Shown here piece after piece: positions 25,525 to 33,312 of a stretch of DNA of 36,697 nt (within the stretch, counting starts at the first letter, position 1; the number at the start of each line of letters is the position of its first letter). The notes beneath the pieces were generated by a model, which was given only the letters and a program-made list of their open reading frames with translations, ran no database searches and was not told the DNA's origin. Source of the stretch: an uncultured Erysipelotrichaceae bacterium (GTDB lineage: Bacteria > Bacillota_I > Bacilli_A > RF39 > UBA660). Both the position numbers and the translations under genes were made by a program. Where the stretch lies: NCBI GenBank assembly GCA_902791625.1, contig CADAWN010000010.1, positions 1 to 36,697 of the forward strand. Direction: 5' to 3'.

Positions 25525-25989
25525 ATGGCATATAGAAAATTAGGAAGAGATAATAAACATAGAAGAAGTATGCTTTCAACACTTACTAAAGAAGTAATTA
25601 TGAATGAAAGTATTACTACAACTGAAACTCGTGCTAAAGAAGCTCGTAAGTTTGTAGAAAAAATGATTACTTATGGTAAAAAGGGAGATTTAGTATCTAG
25701 AAGAAAAGCATTAGCATTCTTAAATAATGATAGTAAAATCGTTGATAAAGTATTCAATGATTTAGCTAAACGTTACGAAAAACGTAATGGTGGATACACT
25801 CAAATTCTTAAACTTGGTGAACGTCGTGGAGATGATTCACTAATGGTTATCTTAAAATTAGTTGAAGAAAAAGCTAAAAAAGAAGTAAAGACTGAAGAAA
25901 AAGCTGATAAGAAAGCTGAAAAGAAACCAGCAGCTAAGAAAGAAACAAAGAAAACAACTACAAAAAAAGATAAAGAAGAAAGTAAATAA
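25525..25989 (+). CDS. 50S ribosomal protein L17 with basic tail
   Basis: The L17 core is seen in [19 protein letters not shown] and [20 protein letters not shown]. At 154 aa it is longer than the usual 118-130 because of a Lys/Ala/Glu-rich low-complexity tail from about residue 115 ([14 protein letters not shown]). Last gene of the operon. Confidence 0.96.
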
Positions 25990-25992
25990 TAA

Positions 25993-26020
25993 AAGGTGAT
26001 TAATTCTTAATCATCTTTTT
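25993..26020 (+). terminator. Terminator of the ribosomal operon
   Basis: AAGGTGATTA (25993-26002) pairs with TAATCATCTT (26008-26017), one G-U, followed by a T-run. It starts 3 nt after the rplQ stop. Confidence 0.8.
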
Positions 26021-26023
26021 TTA

Positions 26024-26052
26024 TTGTCAAAAAGAGGAAAATGTGTTATAAT
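26024..26052 (+). promoter_or_regulatory. Promoter of the first HA-repeat gene
   Basis: TTGTCA (26024-26029), 17-bp spacer, TGT-TATAAT (-10 at 26047-26052, extended). It follows immediately after the operon terminator. Confidence 0.75.
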
Positions 26053-26084
26053 AAGCGCAACTTTTAAATGAAGAGGGATGTTAA

Positions 26085-28277
26085 ATGAAAAAAGACTTAT
26101 CTATAACACCAAAAGGAATAGAAATATTAAAAGAAAAAGATACACATTTAGATACTAAAAAAATTAGTGATAAATGGATGAGTAAGTATGTATTAGCTAA
26201 AAAATACTATGAACATTATGGCAGTTTAGAAATGCCTGCAAAATTTAAAACTAAAAATGGAGTAGACTATGATGATGAAGGTGTTCAATTAGGTCCTTGG
26301 ATTCGAAATATGAAATATGGAATCAAAGGTCTAAATAGTTGCAAGATTACTCAAGAACAAATTAAGTTATTAGAAGATATAGGATTAGATTGTAATAATG
26401 ATGTAAGAGAAGAAGATTGGAATAATAAGTATAAATTGGCTAAGACATATTATGAATATTATGGTAATCTAGAAATACCTCAAAGATTTAAAACAAAAAA
26501 TGGAATAGATTATGATGAAGATGGAGTAAAATTAGGAACTTGGATTCATTCTCAGCGTAAAGCAATAAATGGAAAAAATGATTGTAAAATAACTCCAGAA
26601 CGTATGCAATTATTGGAAAGTATTGGAATGCGAATCGATAGTACTTATAGAGAAGAACAATGGATGAAAAAATATAATTTAGCAAAGACATATTATGAAC
26701 ATTATGGAAATTTAAATATTAATAGAAAGTTTAAAACTCTAGATGGAATAAACTATGATGAACAAGGTGTACAATTAAGACGTTGGTTAGATGAACAACG
26801 TTTTGCAACTACAGTTGATAATGGAGTAAAATTAACTCCTCAAAGAATTAAATTATTAGAAGAAATAGGATTTGACTTTAGTATTATTGATAGAGATAAA
26901 CAATGGATGAGTAAATACGAATTGGTAAAAACATACTATGAGTATTATGGAAATCTAAATATTCCTATAATGTTTAGAACTTTAGATGGAATAAACTATG
27001 ATGAACAAGGAATTAGATTAGGTGTTTGGTTAAGTGAACAACGTAGAAGAATGGGAAATAATAATGAACTAAAATTAGAACCAGAACGAATAAAACTACT
27101 AAAAGATATTGGATTAGATTTTAAGGTTGCCGATAAAGAAAAACAGTGGATGGAAAAGTATAAATTAGTAAAAGCATATTATGAGCATTATGGAAATTTA
27201 GATGTTCCTATAATGTTTAAAACATCAGATGGAATAAAATATGATAAGCAGGGAATTAAAATAGGAACTTGGCTTTATAAACAACGTCAAGGAATTAAAG
27301 GAATAAATAATTATAAAGTAACACCTGAGCACATTAAATTACTAGAAGAAATAGGAATAGATTGTAATAATATTGGTAGAGAAAATAAATGGATGAATAA
27401 ATATAAATTAGCAAAGGCATACTATGAACATTATGGAAATTTGAAAATACCTAAAAATTTTAAAACTAAAAATGGTGTAGATTATGATGAAGAAGGGGTT
27501 AAATTAAGAAACTGGCTTCAAAATCAATTTTATGGAATCATTGAAATTAATAATATGAAGATAACACCTGAACATATTAAATTATTAGAAGAAATAGGAA
27601 TAGATTGCAATAATATAGGTAGAGAGAATAAATGGATGAAAAAATACAATTTAGCAAAGATATATTATGAGTATTATGGAGATTTAGATATTCCTATAAT
27701 GTTTAGAACTCTAGATGGTATAAATTATGATGAAGATGGAATAAAACTTGGATTTTGGCTTAGTACTCAAAAACAAAGAATTAAAGAAAAATCTAATTTG
27801 AAAGTAACACAAGAACACATTAAATTACTAGAAGAGATAGGACTAGATTATAATAATATTGATAAACAAGATAAATGGATTAATAAGTATATTTTAGCAA
27901 AAGCATATTATGAACATTATGGTAATTTAAAAATAAAACAGAGATTTAAAACTAAAAATGGTATTGATTATGATGAAGAAGGAGTTAAATTAGGAATCTG
28001 GATTAATAGTCAAAGAGAAGGAATTAAAGGACAAAATGCTTTAAACTTAACTCCAAAACAAATCAAATTATTAGATAATATAGGAATGATATGGTTTACT
28101 GATATAATAGATAATAGACTTCAAGATGAAAAAATAACTGATAAAAATATTAAAGCTAAACAAATAGAAATGAGAAATAGGTTTTATTCTGTTTTAAATA
28201 GTTTTGAAGATGAAGAATTACCAACTAAAGAAGAATTAAATAATAAGTTATTGTGTAAATTAAATCATAGAAAATAA
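26085..28277 (+). CDS. HA-repeat array protein 1 (8 helicase-associated repeats, no helicase)
   Basis: The 730-aa soluble protein consists of a 30-aa N-terminal cap, eight tandem repeats of about 81 aa from W31, and a 53-aa C-terminal cap. The repeat consensus is W-x3-Y-x-LAK-x-YYEHYGNL-x-IP-x2-F-KT-x-GxxYDxxG, then LG-x-W-x3-Q-x(8-12), then T-x-x-x-IKLLEEIG. This is the helicase-associated domain pattern (PF03457-like), normally found as a few copies after a helicase. The N-cap (ITPKGIEILKEK) is itself a half repeat. HA domains are thought to bind nucleic acid; an array of eight suggests extended binding to DNA or RNA, which is inference. Start, own promoter and own terminator are clear. A paralogue lies at 29625. 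Confidence 0.8.
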   Translation: MKKDLSITPKGIEILKEKDTHLDTKKISDKWMSKYVLAKKYYEHYGSLEMPAKFKTKNGVDYDDEGVQLGPWIRNMKYGIKGLNSCKITQEQIKLLEDIGLDCNNDVREEDWNNKYKLAKTYYEYYGNLEIPQRFKTKNGIDYDEDGVKLGTWIHSQRKAINGKNDCKITPERMQLLESIGMRIDSTYREEQWMKKYNLAKTYYEHYGNLNINRKFKTLDGINYDEQGVQLRRWLDEQRFATTVDNGVKLTPQRIKLLEEIGFDFSIIDRDKQWMSKYELVKTYYEYYGNLNIPIMFRTLDGINYDEQGIRLGVWLSEQRRRMGNNNELKLEPERIKLLKDIGLDFKVADKEKQWMEKYKLVKAYYEHYGNLDVPIMFKTSDGIKYDKQGIKIGTWLYKQRQGIKGINNYKVTPEHIKLLEEIGIDCNNIGRENKWMNKYKLAKAYYEHYGNLKIPKNFKTKNGVDYDEEGVKLRNWLQNQFYGIIEINNMKITPEHIKLLEEIGIDCNNIGRENKWMKKYNLAKIYYEYYGDLDIPIMFRTLDGINYDEDGIKLGFWLSTQKQRIKEKSNLKVTQEHIKLLEEIGLDYNNIDKQDKWINKYILAKAYYEHYGNLKIKQRFKTKNGIDYDEEGVKLGIWINSQREGIKGQNALNLTPKQIKLLDNIGMIWFTDIIDNRLQDEKITDKNIKAKQIEMRNRFYSVLNSFEDEELPTKEELNNKLLCKLNHRK

Positions 28278-28281
28278 TGTA

Positions 28282-28306
28282 AAGGTGATTTTTAATCACC
28301 TTTTTT
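28282..28306 (+). terminator. Terminator of HA-repeat gene 1
   Basis: AAGGTGATT-TTT-AATCACCTT, perfect 9-bp stem, followed by Ts; 4 nt after the stop. Confidence 0.8.
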
Positions 28307-28315
28307 ATGTTATTA

Positions 28316-28321
28316 TATAAT
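28316..28321 (+). promoter_or_regulatory. Possible -10 of the sigma-factor gene
   Basis: TATAAT at 28316-28321 lies about 65 nt before the start codon. No good -35 is visible; the -35 position falls in the preceding terminator. Confidence 0.35.
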
Positions 28322-28388
28322 GTATAAAAATAAAAAATTACTAACCAAATTAAAAAATAAAACACTATATTATTGAAAGGTGATATAA

Positions 28389-28862
28389 ATGGATGCAATA
28401 TATGATGAGTATTTTGACAAAATATATAATTGGTCTATAAAGAAAACAAATAATAAAGAAGATGCTGAAGATTTAACTAATAGTGTTTTTCTTGCTATAT
28501 TTGAATACTTTAATAAAGATATTAAAGTAGAAAAATTAGAAAACTTAATATGGAAGATTGCCTATAATTTATGGTCGACTAAAGCAAAGAACTATATTAA
28601 AGAAAAGAATAATACTGAATTTAATGAAGAATATCAATCTATTGATAATACAGATATGCTAGATAAAGTTATATATCGTGAAATAGTTAATAACTTAGAT
28701 AATGTTGGATTAACTACTAATGAGAAAAAAGCATTTGAACTTTATTATATAAATGACCTTTCAGTAAAAGAAATAAGTGAAAAACTAGATAGTAGTGATA
28801 CAAATATAAAATATTATTTGTACAGTGCTAGAAAAAAGATAAAGGAGAGATATTATGAATAA
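28389..28862 (+). CDS. ECF-type RNA polymerase sigma factor
   Basis: The 157-aa protein has region 2 at the N-terminus (YDEYFDKIYNWSIKKT, then EDAEDLTNSVFLAIFE, the core-binding helix) and region 4 at the C-terminus (LTTNEKKAFELYYINDLSVK, then EISEKLDSSDTNIKYYLYSA, a helix-turn-helix). There is no region 1 or 3, as expected for group 4 (ECF) sigma factors. AAAGGTGAT precedes the ATG. The end overlaps the next gene by 8 nt, so that gene is likely its partner, in the position where an anti-sigma factor is usually encoded. Which promoters it reads is unknown. Confidence 0.8.
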   Translation: MDAIYDEYFDKIYNWSIKKTNNKEDAEDLTNSVFLAIFEYFNKDIKVEKLENLIWKIAYNLWSTKAKNYIKEKNNTEFNEEYQSIDNTDMLDKVIYREIVNNLDNVGLTTNEKKAFELYYINDLSVKEISEKLDSSDTNIKYYLYSARKKIKERYYE

Positions 28863-29439
28863 ATTTGGTTTTGATAAGTATTTAGATATTTTAAATAAGG
28901 AAAAAGTTAAACATGGTCTAGATTTATATACACCATTATTTCCAATGTTTAGAGTAGAAAATGATAAGTTATATGTGGGAATAACTTTAGTTAGTGATAA
29001 AGATAATGTTTGGGATAAGAATGAAGTAATTAAACCTGAATACTGGTCTTTAATTGATATTGATACTGAAGAAGTTGTTTCATTTAATAAGACTAGTGAA
29101 AAAGATTTTGTAATTGGAGAAGTTATACCTAAAGTATATGATAATGTAGATAAAGAAATATCAAAATATACAGTAGAAAAAACTATGCAATATAAAGAAT
29201 ATTTTAAAAATGACTTATTAAACTTCACTGTACCAATTCAAAAAAAATTAGCTGATATTTTAGGAGAAGATATAGAAATAGATGGAGAAAAAGTTAATCT
29301 TAACGAATATGCTATTTCTACCATAGAAGAAGAAGCTAATGAAAAAATTAATGAATTAGTAAAAATGTTAGTATGGGATAAATATGGATCTATTATTTTC
29401 TATTATGATATGTTATATAAACAAATAATAAAATATTAA
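28855..29439 (+). CDS. Unknown partner of the ECF sigma factor
   Basis: The 194-aa protein has no membrane helix, so it is not a classical membrane anti-sigma factor. It has an N-terminal alpha/beta part (LYTPLFPMFRVENDKLYVGI, then EYWSLIDIDTEEVVSFNKTS) and a long helical C-terminal half from about residue 105 (EKTMQYKEYFKNDLLNF onward). No family is recognised. The 8-nt overlap with the sigma gene indicates coupled translation. The stop may be premature: the frame one base over stays open from 29432 to 29524 with protein-like sequence up to the terminator at 29533. A cytosolic anti-sigma factor or signal sensor is possible. Confidence 0.6.
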   Translation: MNKFGFDKYLDILNKEKVKHGLDLYTPLFPMFRVENDKLYVGITLVSDKDNVWDKNEVIKPEYWSLIDIDTEEVVSFNKTSEKDFVIGEVIPKVYDNVDKEISKYTVEKTMQYKEYFKNDLLNFTVPIQKKLADILGEDIEIDGEKVNLNEYAISTIEEEANEKINELVKMLVWDKYGSIIFYYDMLYKQIIKY

Positions 29440-29524
29440 TAAAGATAAATTAAAACTATGTATTGAAATAATGAATAATTATTATCCAGGAGTTAATTAC
29501 ATAGACAATTTCTTTAATATTTAA
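29440..29524 (+). other. Possible frame-shifted C-terminal tail of the sigma-partner gene
   Basis: In the +1 frame, codons from 29432 read NINKDKLKLCIEIMNNYYP and on through GVNYIDNFFNI to a TAA at 29522-29524, nine bases before the terminator. No ribosome site precedes it. Genes in this region normally end next to their terminators, so this may be the lost tail of the 194-aa protein. Confidence 0.3.
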
Positions 29525-29532
29525 AACAAAAT

Positions 29533-29560
29533 GATGATTAGAAAATAATCATCTTATTTA
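29533..29560 (+). terminator. Terminator after the sigma cassette
   Basis: GATGATTA-GAAAA-TAATCATC, perfect 8-bp stem, followed by TTATTTATT. Confidence 0.7.
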
Positions 29561-29589
29561 TTGAAAATAAACGAGAAATATGATATAAT
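29561..29589 (+). promoter_or_regulatory. Promoter of the second HA-repeat gene
   Basis: TTGAAA (29561-29566), 17-bp spacer, TGA-TATAAT (-10 at 29584-29589, extended). It resembles the promoter of HA-repeat gene 1. Confidence 0.75.
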
Positions 29590-29624
29590 AACGCTAATTA
29601 TTTTAACTGGTGAGGGGTTTATAT

Positions 29625-32045
29625 ATGAAAAAGGATTTAAATATAACTCAAAAAGGATTAGAAATATTAGAAGAAAAAGAAGTACATTTAGATACTAGTA
29701 ATATAGAGTCTAGTTGGATGGAAAAATATAATTTGGCAAAATTATATTATCAACATTATGGTAATTTAGAAATACCGCAAAAATTCAAAACAAAAAATGG
29801 TGTAGATTATGATGAAGAAGGAGTTTGTTTGGGAGCTTGGATTCTTATTCAACGTCAAGCATTTAATGGAAAAAATAGTTTACAATTATCTTCAGAACAG
29901 ATTAAGTTATTAAATGAAATAGGAATGCGATGGGATTATATTAATCATAAAGAAAAATGGATGGAAAAATATAATTTAGCAAAAGCATATTATGAACATT
30001 ATGGTAATCTAGAAGTACCTTCTGATTTTAAAACAAAAAATGGTGTAGACAAAGAAGAAGATGGAATAAAATTAGGAATATGGGTTTATGATTTACGTCA
30101 GACACTTAAGGGAAGAAGAAATCATAAAATCTCCTTAGAACAAATCAAGTTATTAGATGAAATAGGAATGCGATGGGATAATATTAATTACGAAGAAAAA
30201 TGGATGGAAAAATATAATTTAGCAAGAACATATTATGAGTATTATGGTAATTTAAAAGTATCTCTAAATTTTAAAACAAAAAATGGAGTAGATTATGATG
30301 AAGAAGGAGTTTTTTTAAGAGCTTGGATTGATACTCAACGTCAAATATTTAAAGGTAATATTAGAAATAAAAAATTATCCTCAGAGCAAATCAAGTTATT
30401 AGAACAAATAGGAGTAGATTTTGATTATATTGTTAAAAAAGAAAAATGGATGAATAAATATTATTTGGCAAAATTATATTATCTACATTATGGTAATCTA
30501 GAAGTACCTTCCGATTTTAAAACAAAAAATGGAGTAGATTATGATGAAGAAGGATTTGGTTTAGGGTTTTGGATTAGTGCTCAACGTAGAGCATTTAATG
30601 GAAAATTATCTTCAGAAAAAATCAAGTTATTAAACGAAATAGGAATGCGATGGGATTATATTATTCATAAAGAAAAATGGATGAAAAAATATAATTTAGC
30701 AAAAGCATATTATGAATATTATGGTAATCTAGAAGTACCCTTCGATTTTAAAACAAAAAATGGTGTAGACAAAGAAGAAGATGGAATAAAATTAGGAATA
30801 TGGATTTATGATTTACGTCAGACACTTAAAGGAAGAAGAAGTTGTAAAATATCACCAGAACAAATCAAGTTATTAGATGAAATAGGAATGCGATGGGATA
30901 ATATTAATTACGAAGAAAAATGGATGAAAAAATATAATTTAGCAAGAGCATATTATGAGCATTATGGTGATTCAGAAATACCACAAAAATTTAAAACAAA
31001 AAATGGAGTAGATTATGATGAAAAAGGAGTTTCTTTAGGAGGCTGGATTGATACTCAACGTCAAATAATTAGAGGCAATATTAGAAATCAAAAATTATCC
31101 TCAGAGCAAATTAAGTTATTGGAGCAAATAGGAATTGATTTTGATTATATTGGAAAAAAAGAAAAATGGATGAAAAAATATAATTTAGCAAGAGCATATT
31201 ATGAGCATTATGGTGATTTAGAAATTCCTTATGAATTTAAAACAAAAAATGGTGTAAATTATGATGAAGAAGGAGTTCAATTAGGAAGATGGATTTTTTA
31301 TCAAAGAAAAGCAATTAAGAAAAAAATGCTAACTTCTGAGCAAATTAAGCTATTCGATGAAATGGGAATGCGATGGGATAATATTGATAAAATGGATGAA
31401 TGGATGGAAAAATATAATTTAGCACAAATATATTATGAACATTATGGTAATTTAGAAATCCCTCGAACATTTAAGACTATAAATGGTATAGATTATGATG
31501 AAGAAGGAGTCCATATAGGTGAGTGGATTGGTAATCAACGAGGAGGAATTAAGGGATTAAATACTTGTAAAGTAACTTCTAAACAAATTAATCTATTAAA
31601 TGAAATAGGAATGCGATGGGATAGTATTAATAAAGTAGATGCATGGATGAGTAAATATAATTTGGCAAAAATATACTATGAACATTATGGTAATTTTGAA
31701 ATTCCTCGAACATTTAAAACTATAAATGGTATAGATTATGATGAAGAAGGAGTTCAATTAGGAAGATGGATTAGTACTCAAAGCCAAAAATTTAAAGGTA
31801 AAATTGATTCAAAATTAACTCAAGAACAAATTAAATTATTAGAAAAAATTGAAATGAAGTGGTTTAGCGACAACATGGATTATAGACTTCAAGATGAAAC
31901 AATAACTGATAAAAATATTAGAACAAAGCAAATAGAAATAATAAATAGATTTTATTCAGTTTTAAATAGTTTCAATGAAGAAGAGTTACCAACTAAAGAA
32001 GAATTTAATAATAAAATTTTATGTAAATTAAATCATAAAAAATAA
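29625..32045 (+). CDS. HA-repeat array protein 2 (9 helicase-associated repeats, no helicase)
   Basis: The 806-aa paralogue of the 26085 protein has a 30-aa N-cap (MKKDLNITQKGLEILEEKEV), nine repeats with first Trp codons at 29715, 29958, 30201, 30447, 30678, 30921, 31167, 31401 and 31644, and a C-cap nearly identical to that of the paralogue (YRLQDETITDKNIRTKQIE start). Repeats 1-3 and 4-6 are corresponding copies of one three-repeat block. ATG 29625 is preferred over GTG 29610 because GAGGGG lies about 7 nt before it and the N-terminus then matches the paralogue. The constant framework with variable short segments invites comparison with modular nucleic-acid-binding arrays, but no code is known. 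Confidence 0.8.
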   Translation: MKKDLNITQKGLEILEEKEVHLDTSNIESSWMEKYNLAKLYYQHYGNLEIPQKFKTKNGVDYDEEGVCLGAWILIQRQAFNGKNSLQLSSEQIKLLNEIGMRWDYINHKEKWMEKYNLAKAYYEHYGNLEVPSDFKTKNGVDKEEDGIKLGIWVYDLRQTLKGRRNHKISLEQIKLLDEIGMRWDNINYEEKWMEKYNLARTYYEYYGNLKVSLNFKTKNGVDYDEEGVFLRAWIDTQRQIFKGNIRNKKLSSEQIKLLEQIGVDFDYIVKKEKWMNKYYLAKLYYLHYGNLEVPSDFKTKNGVDYDEEGFGLGFWISAQRRAFNGKLSSEKIKLLNEIGMRWDYIIHKEKWMKKYNLAKAYYEYYGNLEVPFDFKTKNGVDKEEDGIKLGIWIYDLRQTLKGRRSCKISPEQIKLLDEIGMRWDNINYEEKWMKKYNLARAYYEHYGDSEIPQKFKTKNGVDYDEKGVSLGGWIDTQRQIIRGNIRNQKLSSEQIKLLEQIGIDFDYIGKKEKWMKKYNLARAYYEHYGDLEIPYEFKTKNGVNYDEEGVQLGRWIFYQRKAIKKKMLTSEQIKLFDEMGMRWDNIDKMDEWMEKYNLAQIYYEHYGNLEIPRTFKTINGIDYDEEGVHIGEWIGNQRGGIKGLNTCKVTSKQINLLNEIGMRWDSINKVDAWMSKYNLAKIYYEHYGNFEIPRTFKTINGIDYDEEGVQLGRWISTQSQKFKGKIDSKLTQEQIKLLEKIEMKWFSDNMDYRLQDETITDKNIRTKQIEIINRFYSVLNSFNEEELPTKEEFNNKILCKLNHKK
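29715..31166 (+). repeat. Duplicated three-repeat block inside HA-repeat gene 2
   Basis: Block A (29715-30446) and block B (30447-31166) each encode three repeats in the same order. Repeat 2 matches 5 (GVDKEEDGIKLGIW, YDLRQTLKGRR), 3 matches 6 (QRQI..GNIRN, SSEQIKLLEQIG.DFDYI) and 1 matches 4. Block B lacks four codons in its first repeat. Repeats 2 and 5 are almost identical over most of 243 bp, so the duplication is fairly recent. Confidence 0.8.
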
Positions 32046-32054
32046 TAAAACAAA

Positions 32055-32085
32055 AAGATGATTATTTTCTAATCATCTTTTTTTG
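32055..32085. terminator. Bidirectional terminator between HA-repeat gene 2 and the carboxypeptidase gene
   Basis: AAGATGATTA (32055-32064) pairs with TAATCATCTT (32070-32079), flanked by a T-run on the plus strand and TTTTGTTTTATT on the minus strand. The carboxypeptidase stop codon (32062-32064) is part of the stem. Confidence 0.75.
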
Positions 32086-33312
32086 TTTTCTTTTCTTCTT
32101 TTTCTTACCTTTTATTTTTGATACTATTAGAGTAATTATAAGAACTATAACTCCAATAATTATATAGTAATATTTCTTTAATACCTTTATGATATCCATC
32201 TTTATTTCTTTATTTATAATTACCTTTTCTTCAGTTATTAATTTACTTTCATAATAGTATTTAACTGAACCAATCTTTTCACCTTTTTTATTACTAAAAC
32301 TTAAACTATTTAATCCTTTATATTCTATTTTTAAATTCTTTATATCATAGTCTTTAGGTAAATACTTTTTCACATCTTTTGTGGATAAAATATTGTAGTT
32401 ATCTATTTTACTTAGAGTAACTGGTATCTTTTTTATTAGTTGTCCTTTTTTTACTAGTGTTTCTTCTTTATAGTTTTCATTCATGAATTTTATTAAGTCT
32501 AGAGTATCAACTATATTATAGTAGTTAGAGCCTATTTGAGAGGCGTTTAAGACGATTATTAACATTTCATGACCATTTATATTGCTTAGGGATGAAAGAC
32601 AGTATCCAGCGTTACCAGTGTACCCTGTTTTACTTCCTAGTATAGTAGTTACATCTTTGTTCTTTCCATATTTACTATTTATTGTTGATGTAACTTTTAA
32701 TCCATTAGATAAAGTATATTCTTTAGCTGTATATATTTCTCTAAATAATTTATTTTTTAAAGCATAATTAAGTAGTTTTCTAACATCATCTGCAGGTTTT
32801 CTAACATCATCTGCAGTAGAATAATGATCATTTATATCTAGACCTGTAACATTAACAAAATGGGTATTTTTTAGGCCTATTTTCTTAGCTAATTCATTCA
32901 TCTTCACTACATAGTTATCAATTGATCCACTAATTAAGATTGCAAGAGAATTAGTAGCATCAGCTCCACTTGGAAGCATTGCGGCATATAATAAGTCTTT
33001 ATAAGTTACTTTATCTCCAACTTTTAATCCTGCTTTACTAGCATCCCAACTAACAGTACTCATAATTTCATTTGTTATTGTTACTTGTTCATCTAAGTTC
33101 TTTATATTTTCTATCGCAGTAATAACAGTTGCTATTTTTGTAAGAGATGCGATAGATGTTTGTTTATTTGAATCAATTTCATATAAAACTTTATCATCAT
33201 TTACGTCATAAACTTCAACTATTTTAGAATTAATAGAAGGATAATCAAGCGCAAATATATTAATTGGTAATAGTATTAATAATGTAATTATAAGGCTATA
33301 AAACTTCTTCAT
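32062..33312 (-). CDS. Serine-type D-Ala-D-Ala carboxypeptidase (PBP5-like)
   Basis: The 416-aa protein trims the terminal D-Ala of peptidoglycan stem peptides outside the membrane. It has a signal peptide (MKKFYSLIITLLILLPINIF), the active-site SLTK (S56, K59), LPSGADAT at the usual S-x-N position (S115 with Ala where Asn is common), the KTG motif (228-230), and, unusually for an amphipathic-anchor family, a C-terminal membrane helix (IIIGVIVLIITLIVSKI) followed by a long Lys/Arg tail. A 21-bp tandem duplication has inserted a second ADDVRKP block near residues 167-180. AGGAGG precedes the ATG. It is transcribed away from the ECF genes. Confidence 0.88.
   Translation of the reverse strand: MKKFYSLIITLLILLPINIFALDYPSINSKIVEVYDVNDDKVLYEIDSNKQTSIASLTKIATVITAIENIKNLDEQVTITNEIMSTVSWDASKAGLKVGDKVTYKDLLYAAMLPSGADATNSLAILISGSIDNYVVKMNELAKKIGLKNTHFVNVTGLDINDHYSTADDVRKPADDVRKLLNYALKNKLFREIYTAKEYTLSNGLKVTSTINSKYGKNKDVTTILGSKTGYTGNAGYCLSSLSNINGHEMLIIVLNASQIGSNYYNIVDTLDLIKFMNENYKEETLVKKGQLIKKIPVTLSKIDNYNILSTKDVKKYLPKDYDIKNLKIEYKGLNSLSFSNKKGEKIGSVKYYYESKLITEEKVIINKEIKMDIIKVLKKYYYIIIGVIVLIITLIVSKIKGKKKKKRKQKKMIRK
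32775..32816 (-). repeat. 21-bp perfect tandem duplication in the carboxypeptidase gene
   Basis: Two adjacent identical 21-mers (32775-32795 and 32796-32816) encode ADDVRK(P/L) twice where relatives have STADDVRKLLNYAL once. The frame is kept and seven residues are added in a helix before the KTG domain part. Confidence 0.85.

What the first reader, a model, noticed from the sequence alone, without database searches (positions are those of the whole stretch)
26085..32045. Two giant proteins built only from helicase-associated repeats
Eight and nine tandem HA-type repeats of about 81 aa form nearly the whole of each protein, capped by a shared N-terminal half repeat and a shared 53-aa C-terminal segment. 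There is no helicase. The framework (W, YYEHYGNL, FKTKNG, LGxW, IKLLEEIG) is constant, and short stretches after FKT, around LGxWxxxQ and before IKLLE vary. HA domains are thought to bind nucleic acid, so a modular array could read extended DNA or RNA. That function is inference.
Basis: partly seen in the sequence, partly recalled or inferred. Interest (0 to 1): 0.8.

Follow-up and report, generated by a model that had tools for sequence, protein, structure and literature searches.

The report
Helicase-less arrays of HA repeats
A gut bacterium carries two intact sister proteins made almost entirely of 8 and 9 copies of the 'helicase-associated' (HA) repeat, and in its relatives the same repeat is attached to DNA helicases and, unexpectedly, to RNA-polymerase sigma factors, so these are probably free-standing DNA-binding arrays whose role can now be tested.

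Summary
ORF A (26085-28277, 730 aa) has 8 HA repeats and ORF B (29625-32045, 806 aa; real start ATG 29625) has 9. Pfam PF03457 matches at E 5e-107 and about 2e-127. They are the only HA genes found in this genome, and no HA-helicase core was found in it. Both genes are intact, each with its own strong promoter; they are promoter-inclusive paralogues, and B contains a recent three-repeat duplication. The framework is under purifying selection (dN/dS about 0.3); seven positions, mainly one face of helix 2, change far faster (dN/dS about 1.5-2.3). In the same bacterial family 54 of 291 genomes carry HA repeats, against 2 of 392 in a phylum sample: on SF2 helicases (some with the A/B tail), on complete sigma-70 factors, and alone. 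A/B are probably helicase-less relatives of HA helicases acting as DNA-binding arrays; DNA binding itself is inferred. A superhelix with a basic groove is not supported: AlphaFold gives confident single repeats but pTM 0.28 for the array, and net charge is about +1 per repeat. HA repeats and small HA-only proteins are known; long HA-only pairs and sigma-HA fusions appear to be a new variant.

The parts
26085..28277 (+). ORF A, 730 aa, eight HA repeats
   Evidence: PF03457 E 5.1e-107, 8 stretches; repeat split
26085..26174 (+). N-terminal cap of A, resembles the second half of a repeat
   Evidence: 63% identical to the cap of B; predicted with low confidence
26175..28118 (+). HA repeats A1-A8, 81 aa each
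28119..28274 (+). C-terminal tail of A, type I, shared with B and with HA helicases of relatives
   Evidence: tail matches L104 and L027 helicase tails at E 1.5e-17 and 2.9e-17; alignment
26024..26052 (+). promoter-like site of A, TTGTCA-17-TATAAT with TG extension
   Evidence: 11 of 12 matches; upstream region aligns with that of B
28281..28303 (+). terminator-like hairpin after A
29561..29589 (+). promoter-like site of B, TTGAAA-17-TATAAT with TG extension
   Evidence: 11 of 12 matches
29625..32045 (+). ORF B, 806 aa, nine HA repeats
   Evidence: PF03457 E 1.9e-127, 9 stretches; start corrected to ATG 29625
29625..29714 (+). N-terminal cap of B
29715..31886 (+). HA repeats B1-B9, 77-82 aa
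29715..31166 (+). recent block duplication: B1-B3 (29715-30446) and B4-B6 (30447-31166)
   Evidence: 81, 91 and 76% protein identity; dS 0.21, dN 0.09
31887..32042 (+). C-terminal tail of B, type I

Best explanation
A and B are free-standing, helicase-less HA-repeat proteins: chains of small folded modules (helix 1, beta-hairpin, helix 2, helix 3) joined by linkers. Through a shared C-terminal tail they are related to SF2 helicases with HA arrays that in relatives can sit near mobilisation genes. I think they bind DNA non-catalytically, several modules at a time, and act as regulatory or architectural DNA-binding proteins; the conserved surface would give general binding and the fast-changing face of helix 2 would adjust specificity. 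Shown: the repeats, absence of a helicase, the shared tail, duplication and turnover, purifying selection on the framework, fast change at seven sites, and fusions of the same module to helicases and sigma-70 factors in relatives. Inferred: DNA binding, specificity from the variable face, and a regulatory role.
For: PF03457 over nearly the whole of both proteins. Tail of A matches helicase-HA tails at E about 1e-17; helicase-HA relative L027 carries 6 HA repeats and the same tail. HA arrays fused behind complete sigma-70 factors (regions 1.2, 2, 3, 4) in G038, G148 and G211, and a split neighbour pair HA-only plus HA-free sigma-70 in G037. HTH-like tails on HA-only proteins next to sigma-HA genes. 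Framework dN/dS about 0.3 shows function; hypervariable sites on one face of helix 2. Own strong promoters.
Against: No binding datum. Net charge only about +1 per repeat. No confident array geometry. The sigma neighbour inside the locus is not a conserved partner. Sigma fusions are in other genera and carry a different tail type. Fast change at the seven sites could be relaxed constraint rather than selection.
Confidence: 0.5

Rival explanations
1. A and B bind RNA rather than DNA, for example as translation or RNA-stability factors; A lies directly after rplQ in the ribosomal protein cluster.
For: Position after rplQ here and in G047. SF2 helicases include RNA helicases. Weak net charge fits single-strand binding as well as duplex binding.
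Against: Sigma-70 fusions act on DNA. The helicase relative matches a phage 'DNA helicase' family, PHROG 16, E 2.8e-20 and lies near mobilisation genes. A and B have their own promoters.
Confidence: 0.2
2. A and B are counter-element proteins: helicase-less relatives that occupy the sites, or poison the assembly, of HA helicases carried by mobile elements.
For: Same tail as HA helicases, no HA helicase in the own genome, patchy distribution, fast-changing surface patch, tandem paralogues.
Against: No PADLOC match for A or B; not near defence genes; the same HA-only form occurs with other tails and beside sigma factors.
Confidence: 0.15
3. The arrays are protein-protein scaffolds, for example binding RNA polymerase or a helicase rather than nucleic acid.
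For: Near-neutral charge; fusion to two unrelated enzymes or factors; variable exposed patch would fit partner choice.
Against: No partner gene travels with HA-only genes across the loci read.
Confidence: 0.1
4. A and B are non-functional or recently acquired relics of helicase genes.
For: Patchy distribution in the family; empty site in two congeners.
Against: Two intact ORFs, matched promoters, framework dN/dS about 0.3, host-like GC3 of 0.125-0.134 against 0.136 in rpoA.
Confidence: 0.05

Closest known systems
Pfam PF03457, HA (helicase associated domain)
   Same: All 17 repeats match, over the curated cut-off
   Different: Named for its place in helicases; here there is no helicase, and a C-terminal tail outside the model is shared
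SF2 (ResIII/DEAD-type) helicases with C-terminal HA arrays, e.g. L027 and plasmid proteins named 'Helicase associated domain protein'
   Same: HA array plus, in L027, L092, L098, L104 and L105, the same tail
   Different: A and B lack the helicase core entirely and start with a 30-aa cap
Small 'helicase associated domain-containing proteins' on actinobacterial plasmids (261 and 223 aa CDS)
   Same: Too short to hold a helicase core as well as the matched HA stretch
   Different: About a third the length; unrelated neighbourhood; domain content not scanned here
Sigma-70/HA fusion proteins of the same bacterial family (G038, G148, G211)
   Same: Same HA module in arrays of 3-13
   Different: Carry sigma regions 1.2-4 and mostly an HTH-like tail; A and B do not
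TALE, PPR and PUF modular nucleic-acid readers (own knowledge)
   Same: Tandem repeats with a constant framework and a few hypervariable positions
   Different: Unrelated repeat; no superhelix shown; no recognition code shown

Membership tests
HA domain (PF03457) | Profile match above the curated cut-off of 28.4 bits | tested here: met
   350.6 and 416.1 bits; each of the 17 repeats also over cut-off in the genome search
HA domain (PF03457) | Small helical fold | tested here: met
   helix 1, hairpin, helix 2, helix 3 with pLDDT 93-98 in most of the core; comparison with 2KTA by fold was not obtained
SF2 helicase with HA array | Helicase core (Walker A, DExH, helicase C) | tested here: not met
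   No helicase domain in A or B; none of this type in the genome, with positive controls in three others
SF2 helicase with HA array | Shared C-terminal tail I | tested here: met
   E 1.5e-17 to 9.4e-12 against five helicase tails
Sigma-70/HA fusion | Sigma-70 regions in the same protein | tested here: not met
   No sigma region in A or B; the adjacent ECF sigma is a separate gene conserved elsewhere without HA
Modular nucleic-acid reader (TALE/PPR/PUF-like) | Variable residues at fixed positions in a constant repeat | tested here: met
   Sites 22, 23, 41, 44, 45, 48, 49
Modular nucleic-acid reader (TALE/PPR/PUF-like) | Continuous superhelix with a nucleic-acid groove | tested here: inconclusive
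   pTM 0.28 for the array with a shallow alignment, 0.59 for a pair
Modular nucleic-acid reader (TALE/PPR/PUF-like) | One-repeat-one-base or similar code | not testable with these tools
   needs binding-site selection
Known anti-phage defence protein | Match to a PADLOC model | tested here: not met
   No match for A or B at E 0.01

The most novel reading that the evidence does not exclude
HA arrays are a modular, fast-diversifying DNA-reading system of this bacterial family: each repeat reads DNA through about seven variable residues, and the same arrays serve as targeting modules of mobile-element helicases, as upstream-DNA readers built into sigma factors, and as free-standing regulators such as A and B.
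Probability: 0.2. Interest if true: 0.85.

Novelty: new variant of a known kind. Interest (0 to 1): 0.52.

Why it matters
The HA domain is known mostly as an unexplained appendage of helicases. Here it stands alone in long, intact, duplicated arrays, and relatives join it to sigma-70 factors. That ties HA repeats to transcription as well as to helicases and makes their binding role testable on proteins without an enzyme attached. If the variable helix face sets specificity, this would be a new modular DNA-recognition scaffold.

Tried and rejected
Local partner idea: the ECF sigma (28389-28862) and the 194-aa gene between A and B looked like partners, but the pair is conserved elsewhere without HA genes in G002 and G003, so rejected. 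Defence system: no PADLOC hit. Other families: the small-print Pfam/NCBIfam hits (Crr6, Exo84_C, DM13) have no stretch significant on its own and are taken as noise. Fold searches against the PDB with the whole array and with two repeats gave nothing meaningful; among viral models the best matches were HA proteins or helicases. The tree of helicase and HA-only forms was too weakly supported to count helicase losses. A tail similarity between A/B and the rplQ-linked HA gene of G047, seen by eye, was not significant. Literature: no held paper contains both 'helicase-associated domain' and 'sigma factor', and none describing HA-only arrays was found. A first search for the helicase core lacked a positive control and was repeated with controls.

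Full report
WHAT IS THERE. The two ORFs are real. A (26085-28277) is 730 aa with eight 81-aa repeats; B is 806 aa from ATG 29625 (not GTG 29610) to 32045 with nine repeats of 77-82 aa. Pfam PF03457 matches at E 5.1e-107 and 1.9e-127, and the 17 HA hits of the whole genome are these 17 repeats. Each protein starts with a 30-aa cap resembling the second half of a repeat and ends with a shared tail of 53 aa after the last repeat. Other profile hits (Crr6 and similar) are taken as noise.

GENES, PROMOTERS, SITE. The two best promoter-like matches on the + strand of 25900-32200 (11 of 12, with TG extension) end 32 and 35 bases before A and B. The 105 bp upstream of A and of B align far above shuffles and above other upstream regions (score 36.5 against at most 27.5 and 21), so A and B are promoter-inclusive paralogues. 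Between them lie an ECF sigma gene and a 194-aa gene. In congeners G001 and G003, rplQ is followed directly by the SDR gene that lies beyond B in the window, so the site is empty there; the sigma/194-aa pair sits elsewhere, without HA genes, in G002 and G003. The sigma neighbour is therefore probably accidental. In another genus (G047) an HA-only gene with four repeats also follows rplQ directly; in G030 and G013 other genes occupy the site. The site is variable, and the HA coincidence may be shared descent or chance.

HOW THE REPEATS EVOLVE. B carries a recent block duplication, B1-B3 to B4-B6 (81, 91 and 76% identity; dS 0.21, dN 0.09). Entropy per position over the 17 repeats correlates with that over 183 repeats from relatives (Spearman 0.74). 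The sites most variable inside the fold are 22, 23, 41, 44, 45, 48 and 49; 41-49 lie on one face of helix 2, away from W42, Q46 and R47 (helical-moment P 0.01 in relatives, 0.03 in A+B). At these seven sites dN/dS is 0.42/0.28 in the recent block and 0.60/0.26 over eight pairs; the framework gives 0.06/0.21 and 0.12/0.42. Fisher's test gives 1.6e-5 for eight pairs against the framework but 0.09 for the recent block alone against all other sites; the pairs are not all independent. The framework is functionally constrained, and one surface patch changes fast, through diversifying selection or relaxation.

STRUCTURE. For a repeat pair with 118 aligned pairs, AlphaFold gives mean pLDDT 90.7 (93-98 in most of the core): helix 1, hairpin, helix 2, helix 3; pTM 0.59. 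For all of A with 20 sequences, pLDDT is 76.7 and pTM 0.28. Single repeats are confident; the arrangement of the array is not. A superhelix is not shown, nor excluded, because the alignment was shallow. Net charge is only +1.4 (A) and +0.8 (B) per repeat. The only solved HA-like chain found is 2KTA, 'putative helicase', by sequence at E 0.39.

RELATIVES. HA repeats occur in 54 of 291 genomes of the window's family (43 of 150 genera) but in only 2 of 392 in a phylum sample, both of this family. Architectures read from 50 loci: (i) SF2 helicase + HA + tail I, e.g. L027, which lies near a large serine recombinase and a relaxase-like gene (those two named by eye); (ii) SF2 helicase + HA + tail II; (iii) complete sigma-70 (regions 1.2, 2, 3, 4) + 3-13 HA in G038, G148 and G211, with a weaker one-repeat case in G030; (iv) HA-only with tail I (A, B, L039, L112, L117), tail II (L043, L106, L107, L108) or HTH-like tail III (beside sigma-HA genes in L033, and in L041, L081, L089). 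HA-only genes often come in tandem, as here. In G037 an HA-only gene is followed after 33 bp by an HA-free sigma-70 gene, a split form of the fusion. Tail A matches helicase tails at E 1.5e-17 and 2.9e-17, better than it matches HA-only tails other than B. The window genome shows no HA-helicase core while three control genomes do.

INTERPRETATION. A and B are most simply helicase-less relatives of HA helicases; the direction (loss of the helicase) is plausible, but the tree is too weak to prove it. Helicase and sigma fusions both place HA arrays on nucleic acid, and sigma fusions favour DNA. I infer non-catalytic DNA binding with a regulatory or architectural function (0.5). RNA binding, a counter-element role and protein scaffolding remain open.

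NOVELTY. HA repeats are known, and short genes annotated as HA proteins exist on actinobacterial plasmids. Long, paired HA-only arrays sharing a helicase tail, and sigma-HA fusions in the same family, are a new variant as far as the held literature shows; that library is incomplete.

Noticed in passing
L033:10584-13370 (-), L082:6099-10364 (+), L083:6314-8491 (-), L084:6527-9784 (-): Complete sigma-70 factors (regions 1.2, 2, 3, 4) with 3-13 C-terminal HA repeats; the array follows region 4 and could contact DNA upstream of the -35 element.
   Followed up: partly
L040:6590-9127 (-): HA-only gene followed after 33 bp by an HA-free sigma-70 gene: a split version of the sigma-HA fusion.
   Followed up: partly
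window 28389-29439 (+): ECF sigma and 194-aa gene pair between A and B; in G002 and G003 the pair is conserved elsewhere beside an rdgB-like gene, so it was moved here or there.
   Followed up: partly
L042:7832-8902 (-): HA-only gene directly after rplQ in another genus, the same site as A.
   Followed up: partly
L090:6761-8215 (-), L096:4118-5683 (-): Two HA repeats joined to a shared N-terminal region (MVELQA.AYYYKI) that matches no Pfam family: a further, unknown HA fusion partner.
   Followed up: no
L081:5504-9673 (-), L082:6099-10364 (+): G148 has very long HA proteins: 17 HA repeats in a 1,390-aa frame and a sigma-HA frame of at least 1,422 aa running off the contig.
   Followed up: no
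L027:5125-8690 (-): Relaxase-like gene and large serine recombinase beside an HA helicase, suggesting a mobilisable element in a rabbit-gut MAG.
   Followed up: no
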